From an uncultured Nitrosomonas sp. (lineage in GTDB: Bacteria > Pseudomonadota > Gammaproteobacteria > Burkholderiales > Nitrosomonadaceae): a DNA stretch of 64,000 nucleotides. The position numbers and the translations under genes were made by a program. Location of the stretch: contig CADEDO010000011.1 in the NCBI GenBank assembly GCA_902826115.1, positions 1 through 64,000 of the forward strand, written 5' to 3'. Positions 46,953 through 53,481 of the stretch are shown piece by piece (the stretch's first letter is position 1; each line of letters opens with the position of its first letter). The notes under the pieces are model-generated. The model was not told where the DNA came from. It saw nothing but the letters and a program-made list of their open reading frames with translations, and made no database searches.

Positions 46953-48350
46953 TTAGGATGATTTGGCCTGTTTTGCTTTTAATGCGTGACTGGCGAGATT
47001 TTTCCCAAGCTCCCAGATAGAGCCCGGTACTTGATGAGTATCTGCAATCGTTTTAGTAAATGCACTGATGATGTGGTCCCGGTCTTTCTGCGTCAGTATC
47101 AACGGTGGTAACAGTTTGACCACATTCATGCCATGCCCGGCAACCTGGGTCAGTATTCTGTGTTCCTTGAACAGCGGAATAGTGATCATCTGGCAGAATA
47201 ATCCTTTATTGGCTGCTTCCAGCATCACCCACGCGGCTTTCAACGACAAGCTGCTGGGTGATTTGAATTCAATCGCGATCATTGATCCCTTGCCTCTCGC
47301 TTCTTTCAGGAATTCAAATTGACCTGTCAGCGCATTTAACCGGTTGATGATATCCGCACCAATGATTGCACTGTTTTCCACCAGTTTCTCGGTTCTAACC
47401 ACTTCCAGGCAAGCCAAGCCGGCCGCCATCGCCATATTATTCTTGGAAAATGTCGAGCCATGCACAACCGCACGATCCATACGATTAAACACGCTATCCA
47501 TAATTTGCTGCGTCATCGCCACAGCACCGACCGGCACAAAACCGCCGGATAAAGCCTTTGCCATACAAATCATGTCAGGTTTTACATTCCAGTGTTCAAT
47601 CGCCCAGAATTTCCCAGTACGACCGAGGCCGGTTTGAATTTCATCAGCCACAAACAATGTGCCGTATTTTTTACACAAGCGTTCGACTTCAGGAAGGTAG
47701 TCATCACTTGGGATATTCACGCCTTTGCCCTGAATCGGCTCAACCACGAAAGCTGCCACATCCCGATTGCATAGTGCCTTATCTAGCGCTGCAAGATCAT
47801 TGAAAGGCACAGAACCGCAATCCAGCAGCAGGGGACCAAAGCCGTCGCGGAAAATTTGCTCGCCATTGAGCGAAAGCGCCCCCATCGTCAAGCCATGATA
47901 AGCGTGATCACAACAAATAATTCTGTTGCGCTTGGTGGCATAACGGGCAAATTTTATCGCGGCCTCAACCGCCTCCGTACCGGAATTGCAAAAGAACACT
48001 CTTTCCAGGTTATCCGGCGTGGTAGTCAGAATCTCTTTTGCCAGCAAGCCGCTCAGTATGGAAACATCGAGTTGCACCAGATCGGGCATTTCGAGAGACA
48101 ATACCTCTTTCAGGGCATTGATGATCGTCGGGTGGTTGCGGCCAAATGCATAAACCCCAAAACCACTCAGCAAATCGAGATATTCGTTATCATTCTCGTC
48201 ATATAAATATTGGCCGACAGCCCGCTGATAATTCCGATCATAACCAATCGTTTTTAAAACCCTGACCATCTGAGCATTCAGATAATGCTCGTGCAGATCA
48301 AATTTATCCGTACGATGCTGTGACAACAGATTGGCTATACTAAAAGACAT
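46953..48350 (-). CDS. Class III aminotransferase, possibly HpnO (hopanoid)
   Basis: A PLP-dependent class III (acetylornithine/4-aminobutyrate-like) aminotransferase of 465 residues. The PLP pocket is FCNSGTEAVEAAIKFAR, the Asp-glutamine region is LFVADEIQTGLGRTG, and the lysine is in CMAKALSGGFVPVGAV. The sequence around YLDLLSGFGVYAFGRNHP and the long C-terminal tail resemble HpnO, which makes aminobacteriohopanetriol, but no other hopanoid gene is in the window. The alternative is a generic aspartate or ornithine-type aminotransferase. Confidence 0.85.
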   Translation of the reverse strand: MSFSIANLLSQHRTDKFDLHEHYLNAQMVRVLKTIGYDRNYQRAVGQYLYDENDNEYLDLLSGFGVYAFGRNHPTIINALKEVLSLEMPDLVQLDVSILSGLLAKEILTTTPDNLERVFFCNSGTEAVEAAIKFARYATKRNRIICCDHAYHGLTMGALSLNGEQIFRDGFGPLLLDCGSVPFNDLAALDKALCNRDVAAFVVEPIQGKGVNIPSDDYLPEVERLCKKYGTLFVADEIQTGLGRTGKFWAIEHWNVKPDMICMAKALSGGFVPVGAVAMTQQIMDSVFNRMDRAVVHGSTFSKNNMAMAAGLACLEVVRTEKLVENSAIIGADIINRLNALTGQFEFLKEARGKGSMIAIEFKSPSSLSLKAAWVMLEAANKGLFCQMITIPLFKEHRILTQVAGHGMNVVKLLPPLILTQKDRDHIISAFTKTIADTHQVPGSIWELGKNLASHALKAKQAKSS

Positions 48351-48742: not shown

Positions 48743-49489
48743 TTATGATGTTTTGGTACAAAATTCACCAACCAGACGCATCACTCGAGCACAATGACTT
48801 CCTTGCCAGTAGACATGCTCGCAAGCAGAGCAGATTAAAAATCTGTCATAGTGTAGTTTTGTCAGTGGCTGCAAGCAGTGCTCGATTTTTTGTTTCTCGA
48901 TTTCCACCAGTTTTCCATTGCAGTGTGAGCAACGCGTCAATGGATTGATTAAAGAATATAGATCAAATCTTTTCAGAACTTCTTGAGTCTGCAGCTTGGG
49001 ATCATCTGCCCGCACAAAATATCCGTGCATAATGATTTTTCGTTGTAGTAATGAGCGATCGCGAGTGAGCACTGTGCGTTGTTGCTCACTGGCAATGGCT
49101 GCCACAGTGCCATCATCGTAGTCATTTCGATACAAACAATCGAATCCCAGCAATCTCAAATAACGCGTTAGCTTGCCAAGATTGGCATCGACTATAAATA
49201 ACCGGGGATATGGCGATTCCGGGCGCAGCTGCAACGGTAATTTCACTTCAGGATTCCCAGAAGCTGGATAAACCTGGATAACATCATTAGCCTGCACAAT
49301 GTAATGAAAGTCCACTGCCAGGCCATTGACCAGAATCAACTCAATTTCCGTGTGCGGTACGTTAAAAGCTTCGATCACATCCTTGACCGAAGCTTTTCGA
49401 TCAAGTCCATGAACAATTTCTGCATCAACCAGAGTGGGCGCAATAAAATCATTCAGTGACTGATAAAAACGTAGTCGAATCTGAGCCAT
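48743..49489 (-). CDS. MoaD/ThiS-like domain fused to Mut7-C RNase domain
   Basis: A 248-residue two-domain protein. Residues 1-80 are a beta-grasp ubiquitin-like domain (MAQIRLRFYQSL... DVIQVYPASGNPEVKL) without the C-terminal Gly-Gly of active sulfur carriers. Residues about 95-180 are a PIN-like Mut7-C RNase domain (LFIVDANLGKLTRYLRLLGFDCLYR, with acidic residues later in TRDRSLL). A zinc ribbon ends it (CSHCNGKL...CSACEHVYW and a further CARV). The family is known as Mut7-C; its RNA target is unknown. Confidence 0.9.
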   Translation of the reverse strand: MAQIRLRFYQSLNDFIAPTLVDAEIVHGLDRKASVKDVIEAFNVPHTEIELILVNGLAVDFHYIVQANDVIQVYPASGNPEVKLPLQLRPESPYPRLFIVDANLGKLTRYLRLLGFDCLYRNDYDDGTVAAIASEQQRTVLTRDRSLLQRKIIMHGYFVRADDPKLQTQEVLKRFDLYSLINPLTRCSHCNGKLVEIEKQKIEHCLQPLTKLHYDRFLICSACEHVYWQGSHCARVMRLVGEFCTKTS

Positions 49490-49715: not shown

Positions 49716-49907
49716 ATGAGAATTAAGCATTTTTTTGTAGTTACCGCAGTTTTAATTCTAACTGCATGCGGTGGCAAACCCACGGCTCCGGAAACACCTG
49801 ATCCTGAGGCTTATGGAAAGACCATTCAACCTTTCCATCAAATACCTTCCGGTGATCAAGAAGGAGGCGGTAAAGCTAGATCAACTGAAGACAAATCGAA
49901 TTACTAA
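49716..49907 (+). CDS. Small lipoprotein, possibly oxygen-regulated
   Basis: A 63-residue exported lipoprotein: basic n-region MRIKHF, hydrophobic core, lipobox LTAC with Cys18. The mature part is only 46 residues, hydrophilic, with Pro and Gly (KPTAPETPDPEAYGKTIQPF) and a charged C-terminal tail. The ribosome binding site is AGAAGG, about 8 bases upstream. An FNR-type site upstream suggests induction at low oxygen. I cannot name the family. Confidence 0.8.
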   Translation: MRIKHFFVVTAVLILTACGGKPTAPETPDPEAYGKTIQPFHQIPSGDQEGGGKARSTEDKSNY

Positions 49908-49989: not shown

Positions 49990-50112
49990 TCACATCATCG
50001 AATCCACCTGAACTTCTAAGTTTTCCAGTTCACAAACTGTATTAACACGCACGCAATCCGATGCACTGCCAACTCTGTCAGCAAATTCAGCACTGACTAT
50101 TGCGTGGTCCAT
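49990..50112 (-). CDS. Possible 40-residue ORF overlapping the P450 stop
   Basis: A 40-codon open frame starting at ATG 50112 and ending at TGA 49990 (MDHAIVSAEFADRVGSASDC...). It overlaps the last 16 bases of the P450 gene in a different frame, as coupled genes do. The composition is acidic and helical-looking with two Cys. No Shine-Dalgarno is visible and no family is recognised, so it may be chance. Confidence 0.3.
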   Translation of the reverse strand: MDHAIVSAEFADRVGSASDCVRVNTVCELENLEVQVDSMM

Positions 50113-51377
50113 GCCAGATCATATGATTCCGGGAAAGGTCCTGATTTATAATCAATATCACCCTTTGGCTCAACTCCTTGCTTTATTAATACCTGGCGCA
50201 CCATTTCCGGAATCATGACCATTCCAACGTAACGTCCCAGGCACTCGTGACTACCAAAACCAAAATGAAAATAGTTATACCAATTGCGTTGCGGAATAAA
50301 TGCTTCCGGCGATTCAAAAGCACGTTCATCGAAGGTTGCCGATAGCGTTACAGGCAAAACATAAGTACCCGCCCGTAAAACAGTTTCATAGTTAGTACCT
50401 TTCGCTGCCGTGTAATCACTGACCGTAGTACGAAACAAATATGAAGTGATCGGAACAAATCGCAAAGCTTCCCAGACAATCCCATCAAATTCAGTTAGAT
50501 CGCTCTTCTGAGCCGCCGTTTGCGCCGCCACCAGCCATTCTTTATGCTGAAATAAATATTGCAGCACTTGAGCAACGGCCTGCGAAGTGGTTTCAATCGC
50601 GCCAATCAATAATCCACCCGCATTGACCCCCAAACGCTTAATATCAAAGTCCAGTTCTTTCGCAAAACTGGTACGCAACATTCTAGTCACAATATCATCC
50701 TCTAACCTGATGATGGTTGAGAATGTCAATTTCTCAAGCTTAACCGCCAACAATCGTTTCCCGATGAGCATGGTGATATAGTCACCCAATTTCTTGGATG
50801 TCTCGGCATGGCGGTCTACAATTTTTTGGTATAGTTCTGGCGAAACGATATCAAAAGGCTGGTTATGAAAGGTATCATATTGATTCCAATAGGACCATTC
50901 GATCAAATCACTTCTTTTTGCACCGGTTAACCCAAAATATTTTTGCACCAGTGTCGCAGGAACCATGCGGCAAAAATCATTCACAACTTCAATGTTGCCA
51001 TTGGCTTGATTCAGAATTCCTTTGGCAATATCGGCCACCATGTCGCGAACCCTGGGAATATCATCACGACTCAGCATGAACTGCATGAGTGACTTTTCAC
51101 GCGTATGCAACGCATCATCATCATGCGCCATCAGGTAATTATCCATCTTAGGAACATAGGGCTGGACAGTAAAAACCTTGGGCATATTCAAAATTTCCCT
51201 GACATCGTCAAAGCGGGTAACCAAGGTACACTTTGGCGTGACAAGAATAGGTCGCTTAGCACGCAATTCCTTAAAAAATGGTAACGGCTCTGTATCCATC
51301 CACCGACGAACCAATGGAAACTTATCCGCTTCAGCTGCCGCATCATACTGGTCAAGATAGCTTGTACTTGTATTCAT
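50097..51377 (-). CDS. Cytochrome P450
   Basis: A 426-residue soluble P450. The haem-binding loop is HFGFGSHECLG with ligand Cys379, the K-helix ExxR is EALR at 303-306, and the I-helix oxygen pocket is LLIGAIETTSQAV, so acid and Thr are kept. Neither a ferredoxin nor a reductase gene adjoins. The ATG at 51377 (MNTSTSYLDQYDAAAE) has a strong ribosome binding site (AAGGAG, 8 bases upstream). It starts 46 bases after the stop of the di-heme gene and almost certainly shares its transcript. The substrate is unknown; a role with the di-heme protein is likely. Confidence 0.95.
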   Translation of the reverse strand: MNTSTSYLDQYDAAAEADKFPLVRRWMDTEPLPFFKELRAKRPILVTPKCTLVTRFDDVREILNMPKVFTVQPYVPKMDNYLMAHDDDALHTREKSLMQFMLSRDDIPRVRDMVADIAKGILNQANGNIEVVNDFCRMVPATLVQKYFGLTGAKRSDLIEWSYWNQYDTFHNQPFDIVSPELYQKIVDRHAETSKKLGDYITMLIGKRLLAVKLEKLTFSTIIRLEDDIVTRMLRTSFAKELDFDIKRLGVNAGGLLIGAIETTSQAVAQVLQYLFQHKEWLVAAQTAAQKSDLTEFDGIVWEALRFVPITSYLFRTTVSDYTAAKGTNYETVLRAGTYVLPVTLSATFDERAFESPEAFIPQRNWYNYFHFGFGSHECLGRYVGMVMIPEMVRQVLIKQGVEPKGDIDYKSGPFPESYDLAWTTQ

Positions 51378-51423
51378 TGCATTGCTCCTTTGCATATAAG
51401 GATCGTTAAATAAATTACCTTGA

Positions 51424-53481
51424 TTACAGGGTCTTAAGATATTCCAGCAAATCCAGTTTTTCATCTTTGGTGAGTGGTTTCAGCACCTTTCCATTTAGCT
51501 GCGCGGTCTTGCCGGATGCGTATTCGTGGCCGGCATTACTGTTGCCTTTCAAACTGGTATCAAAGGTAGATCCCTTGTATCCGCTACTTTTCAAGCCTAC
51601 TTTTGCGGGATCGAATTCACGTGATCCGACTTGGAACTGATCAGGGCGATATTCGCCATCTTCGGGATCACCTTCACGCTTCTTTGGCAACAATAAATCA
51701 TATAATGTAGGAACTGAACCATTGTGCAGATATGGAGCGGTCGCCCAGATGCCATTTAAGGAGCGCGCTTTGTAAGCATTTAACGAAGCAAGCGGACTGG
51801 CGGTAGTGTCCGGATCATAGTTACCTTGCTTAATGGAAGACTTAATTTCATTATGAAAGAAAGCCTTGGTGATATCCACAATCCAGTCTGTCCATCGCTG
51901 AAAGAACCATTTATCGGGATCCGGGGTAGCAACCACGTTGAGTGTTGCTTTGGTCAGCAAGGCGGCAACCGGTGCTTTACGGTCCAGCAGAATATCGCCA
52001 ACTTCAAGACCCACGTATTGATTCCGCAGAATACCGGAATATCCCTGCGCATTGATGCTGTTCTCGGACATGCGTGGATCGGTTCCGACATCACTTACCC
52101 TCGACATATTGGCAATGATACGACGATCAGGATCGGCACGATCAATCCGGGCATGGCAACTGACACAATATTCATTAAATATTGATTCGCCTCGAGAAGC
52201 ACGTTGCTGATCGATCGATCCCAAGATATCCTGCGGCCACACAGGTGATTGTAATTTTTGCAGGTGGGATTCAATTTTGCGCAAATTATGCACATCCACC
52301 GATGAGGCAAAGCTGACTTGAGTAATGCCCGAAGATTGCCCGCCGATCAGCGTGGACAGATTCGCTCTTTTGGCTTCTTGCCAATCTAATGTTCCAAATA
52401 CTCCAATGACTTCGCCCGTATTACGCCCAACCGGCCCCAATCCGGCATTGGCCGCCAAACCATTCCATTGCACATAATCATGCTGCGGAATATCCCATAA
52501 GAACGGATAACTGACGGGGGCATCAGCCGGATTAAACAATTCTTTACGTAATCTGCCTAACTGCCATTTCGTCAGAGTTTTACTCAGGCGTTCAACCACA
52601 TGATCGCGCTGTTCACCTGACAGCACCTTGTCGGTATCTTGCACGATCTTGTCGAGATCCTGATCCGATAATTGATCATCGCGCATGATCTTGCGATCAC
52701 GCAACAGCTCTCTGAGTTCTTTTTCGTTAATAAGATGCTCAAGCACCCGGTTATAAATGCGCCCGAACGCATCCAGTCGTGCGAAACCATAGGGAGTCGG
52801 GCTACGATTGACAATGGTGTAGCTGGTAATGCGTTGCTCATATTTTTCCAAATCAGCCAATACTTCCGCCTCTGATTTGTAATGTCCGCTCGCCAATACA
52901 TTTTTAACAAACCGCCCCCGGGTCGCTTCATTCTCGCGCGTATATCGCAAGGCCTTGGCAAGGTCAATCATGATATTTTCCATATCAGCGCTGGCCGGAC
53001 CGCCATCAATACGAATACCGACACCGTTATAATTGATTTGTCCGGTATGGCAAGCCGCACAAGTCAACCCCACATAATCTTTTCCTTTGTAGGTGTCTTT
53101 GACCCAGCCGACTGGCAAAGCATCCGGGTTACCAGAAGTCGCTTTCTGCGGCAGGTAGCGATACGCATTCATATTCTCAGAAGAACGAAAAGGCTCTGAT
53201 TTCTCTGCTTTTTCCAATGCTAGAAAGAAATCATACGGCATCAAGTTAGACCCTTGCGTGGTATTATAGAACCACATGCTGTCTGCGGTATCCCAGCCCT
53301 GCTCAAGGTATTTGATCGACGTATAACTATCGCCAAACTGATCTTGCTTAACCGTTGCCGCACCACGATCGGGCTCAGTCTCAGGAATTAACGTGCAGGC
53401 AGATATTCCAAGGAAAGAAAACACTACTACTGAAATTAGAAGCAGAAGTTGTTTTCCAGACGACACAAAATATTGTTTCAC
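51424..53481 (-). CDS. Di-heme cytochrome c peroxidase-like lipoprotein (RoxA/OdsA-like)
   Basis: A 685-residue exported di-haem protein. The signal peptide ends in lipobox GISAC (Cys29). Covalent haem sites are CAACH (141-145) and CVSCH (439-443). A conserved YLHNGSVPTLYDLLLP block near 595 is typical of the cytochrome c peroxidase/MauG group; the length matches the large subfamily holding rubber oxygenase RoxA and the Pseudomonas oleate dioxygenase/diol synthase, far longer than classic CcpA (about 330). Start is GTG 53481 after AAGGGG; the longer TTG frame to 53499 has no such site. It is followed directly by the P450 gene. Probable oxygenase or peroxidase acting on a hydrophobic substrate. 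Confidence 0.9.
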   Translation of the reverse strand: MKQYFVSSGKQLLLLISVVVFSFLGISACTLIPETEPDRGAATVKQDQFGDSYTSIKYLEQGWDTADSMWFYNTTQGSNLMPYDFFLALEKAEKSEPFRSSENMNAYRYLPQKATSGNPDALPVGWVKDTYKGKDYVGLTCAACHTGQINYNGVGIRIDGGPASADMENIMIDLAKALRYTRENEATRGRFVKNVLASGHYKSEAEVLADLEKYEQRITSYTIVNRSPTPYGFARLDAFGRIYNRVLEHLINEKELRELLRDRKIMRDDQLSDQDLDKIVQDTDKVLSGEQRDHVVERLSKTLTKWQLGRLRKELFNPADAPVSYPFLWDIPQHDYVQWNGLAANAGLGPVGRNTGEVIGVFGTLDWQEAKRANLSTLIGGQSSGITQVSFASSVDVHNLRKIESHLQKLQSPVWPQDILGSIDQQRASRGESIFNEYCVSCHARIDRADPDRRIIANMSRVSDVGTDPRMSENSINAQGYSGILRNQYVGLEVGDILLDRKAPVAALLTKATLNVVATPDPDKWFFQRWTDWIVDITKAFFHNEIKSSIKQGNYDPDTTASPLASLNAYKARSLNGIWATAPYLHNGSVPTLYDLLLPKKREGDPEDGEYRPDQFQVGSREFDPAKVGLKSSGYKGSTFDTSLKGNSNAGHEYASGKTAQLNGKVLKPLTKDEKLDLLEYLKTL

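What the first reader, a model, noticed from the sequence alone, without database searches (positions are those of the whole stretch)
50097..53481. Two-gene operon: exported di-haem oxygenase-like protein plus cytochrome P450
A 685-residue di-haem lipoprotein of the large cytochrome c peroxidase subfamily is followed after 46 bases, with a strong ribosome binding site, by a P450. Large di-haem relatives include RoxA (rubber cleavage) and the Pseudomonas enzymes that turn oleate into hydroperoxide and diol. P450s such as fungal PpoA domains and plant CYP74 rearrange fatty-acid hydroperoxides. A bacterial oxylipin-type pathway built from a di-haem dioxygenase and a P450 is a testable idea. One difficulty is location: the di-haem protein is periplasmic and the P450 cytosolic.
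Basis: partly seen in the sequence, partly recalled or inferred. Interest (0 to 1): 0.75.

Follow-up and report, generated by a model that had tools for sequence, protein, structure and literature searches.

The report
Paired haem oxygenase and P450 genes
An ammonia-oxidising bacterium carries two neighbouring genes, a two-haem enzyme and a cytochrome P450, that stay together across distant bacteria and probably make and then convert oxidised lipids, much as fused fungal enzymes do.

Summary
The two genes are as described: a 685-aa di-haem lipoprotein (51424-53481, -), then 46 bases later, behind AAAGGAG, a 426-aa P450 (50097-51377, -). The window is Nitrosomonas-like.

The pairing is real and old. 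Of the 80 nearest P450 relatives kept (51-98% identity; Pseudomonadota, Acidobacteriota, one Verrucomicrobiota contig), 77 have a RoxA-type di-haem gene within 3 kb on the same strand. In a 398-genome phylum sample all 18 family members have a haem partner; 0 of 20 other P450 loci do.

The partner is interchangeable. Within one P450 clade it is a di-haem protein, a COX-like protein (3 plasmids; catalytic Tyr-His kept, distal Asp as in Nostoc 10S-dioxygenase) or a DyP peroxidase, sometimes fused. P450-free di-haem genes are followed by a short catalase-related gene in 8 of 31 stretches examined; two COX-like relatives also have one beside them. Nostoc 10S-DOX feeds a catalase-related hydroperoxide lyase.

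Best reading: the haem oxygenase makes a lipid hydroperoxide, probably from a monounsaturated fatty acid, and the P450 converts it. Coupling is near certain; the chemistry is inferred. Against: the P450 keeps a normal Glu-Thr pair, and the two proteins lie in different compartments.

The parts
51424..53481 (-). di-haem RoxA-like lipoprotein gene (685 aa, GTG start)
   Evidence: NF040606 620 bits (cut-off 150), PF21419 66.7 bits (cut-off 26.7); RoxA best solved relative
53395..53481 (-). lipoprotein-type signal, lipobox ISA-Cys29
   Evidence: read by eye from the translation; lipobox rule recalled
53047..53061 (-). N-terminal haem site CAACH (Cys141-His145)
   Evidence: both Cys and the His invariant in alignments A2 and A5
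52153..52167 (-). C-terminal haem site CVSCH (Cys439-His443)
   Evidence: both Cys and the His invariant in A2 and A5
51709..51735 (-). PYLHNGSVP (residues 583-591), the stretch called MauG motif in PA2077/PA2078 (PYFHNGSVP)
51526..51528 (-). His652 in GNSNAGH, aligned with NDNGGH of RoxA (taken as RoxA His641)
51378..51423 (-). 46-base gap with ribosome binding site AAAGGAG at 51385-51391
50097..51377 (-). cytochrome P450 gene (426 aa), divergent family
   Evidence: PF00067 59.9 bits; AlphaFold2 pLDDT 85.6, nearest solved folds bacterial CYP134A1 and CYP109
50586..50603 (-). I-helix GAIETT (residues 259-264), acid-alcohol pair Glu262-Thr263
50460..50471 (-). ExxR motif (Glu303-Arg306)
   Evidence: Glu and Arg invariant in A4 and A6
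50235..50264 (-). haem-thiolate loop FGFGSHECLG (Cys379)
   Evidence: Cys379 invariant in A1, A4 and A6

Best explanation
The two genes form a two-step lipid oxidation unit. The exported di-haem lipoprotein, a relative of RoxA and of the group that holds the Pseudomonas fatty-acid 10S-dioxygenase, adds O2 to an unsaturated lipid, most likely a monounsaturated fatty acid, and leaves a hydroperoxide. The product passes to the cytosolic P450, which converts it by isomerisation, cleavage or a further hydroxylation. The P450 belongs to one clade whose members are coupled to haem oxygenases or peroxidases of three unrelated folds. Shown: the gene pair, its conservation, the difference of partners within one P450 clade, and the catalase-related gene that stands beside relatives of both oxygenases where this P450 is absent. 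Inferred: the substrate, the hydroperoxide intermediate, the direction of the steps and passage across the membrane.
For: Pairing: 77 of the 80 best P450 relatives (L088-L167) and 104 of 107 loci in all have a partner within 3 kb on the same strand or in the same protein; 53 of 56 after clustering at 82% identity. Phylum sample: 18 family-level hits (178-637 bits) in 398 genomes; 16 were fetched and all 16 have a partner; the other two are the window and G015 (DyP). Control: 0 of 20 other P450 loci. The genomes of the three unpartnered loci carry di-haem genes elsewhere; two of these genes fall inside the mostly P450-linked di-haem clade. Partner kinds: di-haem, COX-like PF03098, DyP. The P450s form one clade against the 20 controls (100*); the COX-like rows are sister to 38 di-haem-type or unpartnered rows (40 rows, 99*), with the Bradyrhizobium di-haem row outside at 94 (quick tree). 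The R. etli COX-like protein's best solved relatives are COX-2 (197 bits), LYRWH aligning on LYHWH; 3 of 3 have LYRWH and FAQYLTDGF, Asp where COX has His207, as in 10S-DOX FtdsF. Nostoc 10S-DOX makes 10S-hydroperoxides of oleate and linoleate, used by a catalase-related lyase (PMC13049297, passages). PA2077, a di-haem protein, is also a 10S-DOX on oleate (PMC4496055, passages). In 8 of 20 stretches fetched with P450-free di-haem genes a short catalase-family gene follows; COX-like relatives L270 and L272 have one beside them too.
Against: The P450s with di-haem or COX-like partners keep Glu-Thr in the I-helix (87 of 88), which fits an ordinary O2-activating monooxygenase. The di-haem protein is exported and the P450 shows no signal. 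DyP peroxidases are not known to me as fatty-acid dioxygenases, and 16 of 16 DyP partners keep the GxxDG motif. The catalase link is partial: 12 of the 20 P450-free di-haem stretches lack such a gene, as do 11 further P450-free di-haem loci, and 5 of the 8 positives come from one genus code. From the di-haem side the P450 link is loose (4 of 51 strong RoxA-like matches). That COX-like rows are nested among di-haem rows, not just beside them, rests on one branch at 94. Foldseek found no significant solved match for the di-haem model. No assay exists.
Confidence: 0.6

Rival explanations
1. Reverse order or conventional P450: the P450 is an ordinary O2- and electron-dependent monooxygenase that hydroxylates a lipid in the cytosol, or further oxidises the alcohol made by the oxygenase; it does not use a hydroperoxide.
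For: Glu-Thr acid-alcohol pair kept in 87 of 88 P450s with di-haem or COX-like partners; fold nearest to class I bacterial P450s such as CYP134A1, CYP109 and CYP142; the compartments fit a P450 step followed by export.
Against: None of the 16 DyP-coupled members of the same clade has the Glu and 7 are fused to the DyP; catalase-related genes stand beside relatives of both oxygenases where this P450 is absent. The ferredoxin pattern scan gave one doubtful ORF near 56 family loci and 1 of 20 controls, so it does not discriminate.
Confidence: 0.25
2. Protective peroxidase: the partner only removes peroxide produced by, or toxic to, the P450.
For: NCBIfam names the di-haem family a cytochrome c peroxidase; DyP partners keep GxxDG; catalase-related genes also occur beside P450-free di-haem genes.
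Against: COX-like partners keep the catalytic Tyr and have lost the distal His; the di-haem partner is exported while the P450 shows no signal; 20 other P450 loci have no such partner.
Confidence: 0.1
3. Isoprenoid rather than fatty-acid chemistry: the di-haem enzyme cleaves an isoprenoid (as RoxA cleaves rubber) and the P450 processes the fragment.
For: RoxA is the best solved relative; DyP enzymes that cleave carotenoids are recalled, from no call.
Against: P0001 falls far below the RoxA, RoxB and RoxC cut-offs (42-57 bits against 900-1000); COX-like partners point to fatty acids.
Confidence: 0.15

Closest known systems
Fungal DOX-CYP fusions (linoleate diol synthases, Ppo proteins)
   Same: a haem dioxygenase coupled to a P450; HxCxG Cys loop; COX-like partner in the rhizobial version
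   Different: here mostly separate bacterial genes, a class-I-like P450, and three alternative partner folds; direct kinship with the fungal P450 domain was not tested
Pseudomonas PA2077/PA2078 oleate diol synthase (FadCcp; also called OdsA/OdsB, name from the finding)
   Same: RoxA-type di-haem proteins with two CxxCH and a PYxHNGSVP stretch, exported; five loci here (L115, L117, L119, L120, L129) also have two di-haem genes in a row
   Different: second step in Pseudomonas is another di-haem protein, here a P450; haem His spacing 298 residues against 245 and 235; no direct sequence comparison was made
Nostoc 10S-DOX plus catalase-related hydroperoxide lyase
   Same: COX-like dioxygenase with a separate hydroperoxide-metabolising haem enzyme; same distal Asp pattern as the rhizobial partner
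   Different: P450 in place of the catalase-related enzyme; di-haem protein in place of 10S-DOX in the window
RoxA, RoxB, RoxC rubber oxygenases
   Same: N-haem, PYxHNGSVP and C-terminal GH and EYxKTL stretches align with RoxA
   Different: far below the NCBIfam cut-offs
CYP74 clan (allene oxide synthase, hydroperoxide lyase)
   Same: proposed substrate type
   Different: acid-alcohol pair kept; no chain named allene oxide synthase or hydroperoxide lyase among the 60 of 163 solved relatives shown

Membership tests
NF040606 di-heme-cytochrome C peroxidase subfamily | score over the curated cut-off of 150 bits | tested here: met
   620.2 bits, residues 63-684
RoxA-like (PF21419) | score over the cut-off of 26.7 bits | tested here: met
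   66.7 bits
RoxA/RoxB/RoxC rubber dioxygenase | NCBIfam cut-offs 1000/900/900 bits | tested here: not met
   42.2, 56.9, 55.2 bits
FadCcp (PA2077/PA2078) | two CxxCH sites and PYxHNGSVP | tested here: met
FadCcp (PA2077/PA2078) | groups with PA2077/PA2078 in a tree | not tested
   no labelled PA2077 sequence was at hand
FadCcp (PA2077/PA2078) | dioxygenation of fatty acids | not testable with these tools
   needs an assay
cytochrome P450 | ExxR and FxxGxHxCxG with Cys ligand; PF00067 cut-off | tested here: met
CYP74-type or DOX-CYP hydroperoxide isomerase | Asn or nonpolar residue near the haem iron in the I-helix stretch SRS4 | tested here: inconclusive
   GAIETT kept, but no such enzyme was aligned, and PMC13049297 reports Thr at this place in 8R- and 9R-AOS
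COX-like dioxygenase (rhizobial partner, not the window) | catalytic Tyr and proximal His (COX Tyr385, His388) | tested here: met
   LYRWH in 3 of 3; alignment to COX-2 shown for one
10S-DOX type (rhizobial partner, not the window) | Asp in place of COX His207 (FtdsF) | tested here: met
   YLTDGF in 3 of 3; pattern from PMC13049297

The most novel reading that the evidence does not exclude
A previously undescribed bacterial P450 clade is a dedicated second-step enzyme for oxygenated lipids. It is coupled to haem oxygenases or peroxidases of three unrelated folds (RoxA-type di-haem, COX-like, DyP), fused in some, and may alternate with catalase-related enzymes in the same role. It is a modular bacterial oxylipin system, and a candidate for the kind of bacterial P450 once joined to a COX-like protein from which the fungal DOX-CYP enzymes have been proposed to come.
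Probability: 0.45. Interest if true: 0.88.

Novelty: new variant of a known kind. Interest (0 to 1): 0.75.

Why it matters
The roles of oxylipins in prokaryotes are called largely unidentified in the start of the abstract of PMC5155153, and none of the passages read pairs a bacterial di-haem protein with a P450. This family gives a genome-wide handle on such pathways in ammonia oxidisers, methanotrophs, rhizobia and Acidobacteriota. [quoted passage not shown] A P450 clade whose partner differs in fold from branch to branch is a natural experiment on which chemistry was kept.

Tried and rejected
Rejected: pairing peculiar to this genome; simple cytochrome c peroxidase in the CcpA sense, on profile evidence only; membership of RoxA, RoxB or RoxC; chance adjacency (control).

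Led nowhere: the AlphaFold2 model of the di-haem protein (pLDDT 78.7, no haem) had no Foldseek match at E 1e-3 or better, so the fold comparison is inconclusive. The second aligner was not available. Two catalase-family proteins found nothing among solved structures by phmmer, and four found no NCBIfam family. Pfam PF00199 matched 6 of the 7 given to it: L270 below the cut-off, L276 and L286 just over, L272, L288 and L292 clearly; the Ruegeria protein of L273 did not match. The ferredoxin pattern scan was uninformative. Apart from the P450 and the di-haem cluster, no gene cluster reached more than 6 of the 56 clustered loci within 6 kb. Direct placement against PA2077 or CcpA was not done.

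Selection to be known: the 107 loci are the 80 kept (of 231 confirmed), 16 fetched, 10 others (L068, L069, L078-L085) and the window. L068 was picked because its weak P450 hit lay beside a di-haem hit. The plasmid loci are 8 of the 12 top rows; four close relatives of these were not fetched. Clustering at 82% removes much of this. Many hosts are metagenome bins; single contigs such as the Verrucomicrobiota one (L138) may be misbinned. Eleven di-haem loci fetched along the way (L065, L070-L077, L086, L087) have neither a family P450 nor a catalase-related gene.

Full report
Observation. Both genes are present and open at the stated coordinates. The upstream gene encodes a 685-residue protein with a lipobox-like ISAC at Cys29, two CxxCH sites (His145, His443), PYLHNGSVP and a GH652 near the end. 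The next gene starts 46 bases later behind AAAGGAG and encodes a 426-residue P450. The closest match in the genome collection is a Nitrosomonas contig with a 98% identical P450.

What the di-haem protein is. It scores 620 bits in NCBIfam NF040606 (cut-off 150) and 66.7 bits in Pfam RoxA-like PF21419 (cut-off 26.7); the RoxA, RoxB and RoxC models give only 42-57 bits against cut-offs of 900-1000. The best solved relative of the family profile is RoxA 4b2n (E 8.6e-14), aligned at the N-haem, the PYFHNGSVP stretch and the GH near the end. Among the 44 solved sequences at E<=1 none bears the name cytochrome c peroxidase; the di-haem enzyme 6e1c is there at E 0.017. In the tree described in PMC4496055 (passages read) RoxA and the Pseudomonas fatty-acid enzymes PA2077 and PA2078 form one group and classical peroxidases with MauG the other. 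Our protein falls on the RoxA side by profile, but PA2077 itself was not placed in a tree here.

What the P450 is. It is a divergent bacterial P450. The model (pLDDT 85.6) is closest to folds such as CYP134A1 and CYP109. It keeps ExxR, the Cys loop and a Glu-Thr acid-alcohol pair.

Conservation of the pair. The P450 scan of the species genomes confirmed 231 relatives, of which the best 80 were kept. Of these 80, 77 have a di-haem gene on the same strand within 3 kb: 75 upstream, 74 of them overlapping or at most 160 bases away, and 2 downstream. The exceptions are L139, L160 and L164. The record titles name Nitrosomonas, Nitrosospira, Methylobacter, Nevskia, Endozoicomonas, Kiloniella, Zetaproteobacteria, Acidobacteriota and one Verrucomicrobiaceae bin; many are metagenome bins. 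The three exceptional genomes all carry di-haem genes elsewhere; L234 and L235 from two of them sit inside a 14-row clade (95*) that is otherwise P450-linked. Of 8 genomes of the window's genus in the order draw, the window's included, 4 have the pair, one has a variant di-haem plus P450 (G063), one has a DyP plus P450 (G015) and two matched neither query.

A sample drawn by P450 sequence alone, and a control. In 398 genomes of the phylum, 18 had a family-level P450 (178-637 bits); the next P450s fall to 120 bits or less. Sixteen were fetched and all 16 have a haem partner: 3 di-haem, 7 DyP near the gene and 6 DyP fused to it. The other two are the window and G015 (DyP). Twenty loci of the lower-scoring P450s in the same list, 10-19.5 kb each, have none of the three partner kinds.

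Partner kinds. Over all 107 loci the partners are 85 di-haem (77, 5 and 3 in three subclasses), 9 adjacent DyP, 7 fused DyP, 3 COX-like and 3 none. In a quick tree of 76 rows the P450 family is one clade against the 20 controls (100*) and the fused DyP rows are one clade (99*). The COX-like rows are sister to 38 di-haem or unpartnered rows (95* for the 38, 99* for the 40), and the Bradyrhizobium di-haem row lies outside these at 94, so the nesting of COX-like among di-haem rests on that one branch; L068 and L212 are long and of unsure place. Three partner folds in one clade still require at least two exchanges. From the other side the link is looser: of 51 RoxA-like matches above 50 bits, 4 lie beside the P450 family by their coordinates.

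The COX-like partner. In plasmids of Sinorhizobium medicae, Rhizobium gallicum and Rhizobium etli the gene after the P450 is an animal-haem-peroxidase protein (Pfam was run on two of the three). The R. etli protein's best solved relatives are COX-2 (197 bits); its LYRWH aligns with LYHWH of COX, that is Tyr385 and His388. All three have LYRWH and FAQYLTDGF, where COX has FAQHFTHQF, so the distal His207 is Asp. PMC13049297 (passages) gives FtdsF for cyanobacterial 10S-DOX and FthqF for COX, and says that 10S-DOX makes 10S-hydroperoxides of oleate and linoleate, which a catalase-related lyase can use. PA2077, a di-haem protein, also makes the 10-hydroperoxide of oleate (PMC4496055). Two unrelated oxygenases known for one product thus have relatives beside one P450 family.

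The catalase-related gene. The nearest plasmid relatives of the COX-like protein outside the P450 loci include Paracoccus yeei and Methylobacterium currus, where it lies directly beside a short catalase-family gene; in Paracoccus a RoxA-like gene precedes both. In Acaryochloris no such gene was detected, and in Ruegeria only a weak relative that Pfam does not call catalase. I then fetched 20 stretches with RoxA-like di-haem genes not beside the P450. In 8 of 20 the di-haem gene is followed at once, on the same strand, by a gene of that family; 12 of 20 are not, nor are 11 other P450-free di-haem loci, so 8 of 31 in all. Five of the 8 come from one genus code (f55 g148), the others from three more families. 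Their frames are 377-411 aa; of the four given to Pfam all match PF00199, two barely. Two of the P450 loci (L095, L105) have a catalase-family gene about 5 kb away on the other strand. The pattern suggests that either a P450 or a catalase-related enzyme can follow either oxygenase, but it is incomplete.

I-helix and partner. Of 88 P450s with di-haem or COX-like partners 87 keep Glu-Thr (ETT or ETM); L068 reads VVNPQ. None of the 16 DyP-coupled ones has the Glu; 13 read PTT, PTI or PTN there. The DyP partners keep GxxDG (16 of 16). DyP loci also encode a third protein with hydrophobic stretches (judged by eye): separate in 9 of 9 adjacent loci, six of them by weak matches of 30-44 bits, and as the middle of the fusion in the six fusions used for that profile. 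This suggests two chemistries in one clade and is the main reason for caution about the window's P450.

Mechanism, shown and inferred. Shown: coupling, partner differences, motifs. Inferred: di-haem dioxygenation of a monounsaturated lipid at the outer face of the inner membrane or in the periplasm, passage of the hydroperoxide inward, and conversion by the P450. The compartment problem remains for the di-haem version; no signal peptide was seen by eye in the P450 or in the COX-like and DyP N-termini printed.

Literature. In the rows shown, searches of the open library listed no paper whose title or abstract start describes a bacterial di-haem/P450, COX-like/P450 or DyP/P450 pair; subscription papers and preprints are not covered. 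[quoted passage not shown] PMC4420034 (passages) calls bacterial cyclooxygenases putative sequences as of 2015. PMC5155153 (passages) says that Pseudomonas diol synthase activity is periplasmic. PMC11719350 was seen in two passages. Other papers were seen in search listings only.

Noticed in passing
L085, L206, L208, L209, L210, L211, L213: P450 and DyP fused in one protein of 1408-1535 aa with a long middle part; a gene homologous to the annotated adenylate/guanylate cyclase of L085 lies directly upstream in all seven.
   Followed up: partly
L276, L283, L286, L287, L288, L289, L290, L292: RoxA-like di-haem gene directly followed by a short catalase-related gene; L292 also has a patatin-like gene upstream.
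   Followed up: partly
L270:2141-6617: Paracoccus yeei plasmid row of RoxA-like di-haem, catalase-family and COX-like genes.
   Followed up: partly
L115:4368-10284, L117, L119, L120, L129: Two di-haem genes in tandem before the P450; in L115 the first copy groups with the window genome's separate paralogue on C9.
   Followed up: partly
L163:6744-12357: Endozoicomonas locus with di-haem genes of two subclasses on either side of the P450.
   Followed up: no
48743-49489: Mut7-C RNase-type gene beside the P450 in the window and also beside the DyP-coupled P450 of Skermanella (L084); may be coincidence.
   Followed up: no
49716-49907: Small plus-strand ORF (63 aa) that reads like a lipoprotein, just downstream of the P450 (read by eye).
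   Followed up: no
46953-48350: Class III aminotransferase whose best NCBIfam match is the prodigiosin enzyme PigE (427 bits, below the 850 cut-off).
   Followed up: no
L083:1075-9236: Bradyrhizobium barranii plasmid: oleate hydratase gene about 3 kb upstream of the di-haem gene and 5 kb upstream of the P450.
   Followed up: no
L068:7731-11587: Variant pair in another genome of the window's genus: 650 aa di-haem and a 626 aa P450 with N-terminal extension and VVNPQ in place of IETTS.
   Followed up: partly
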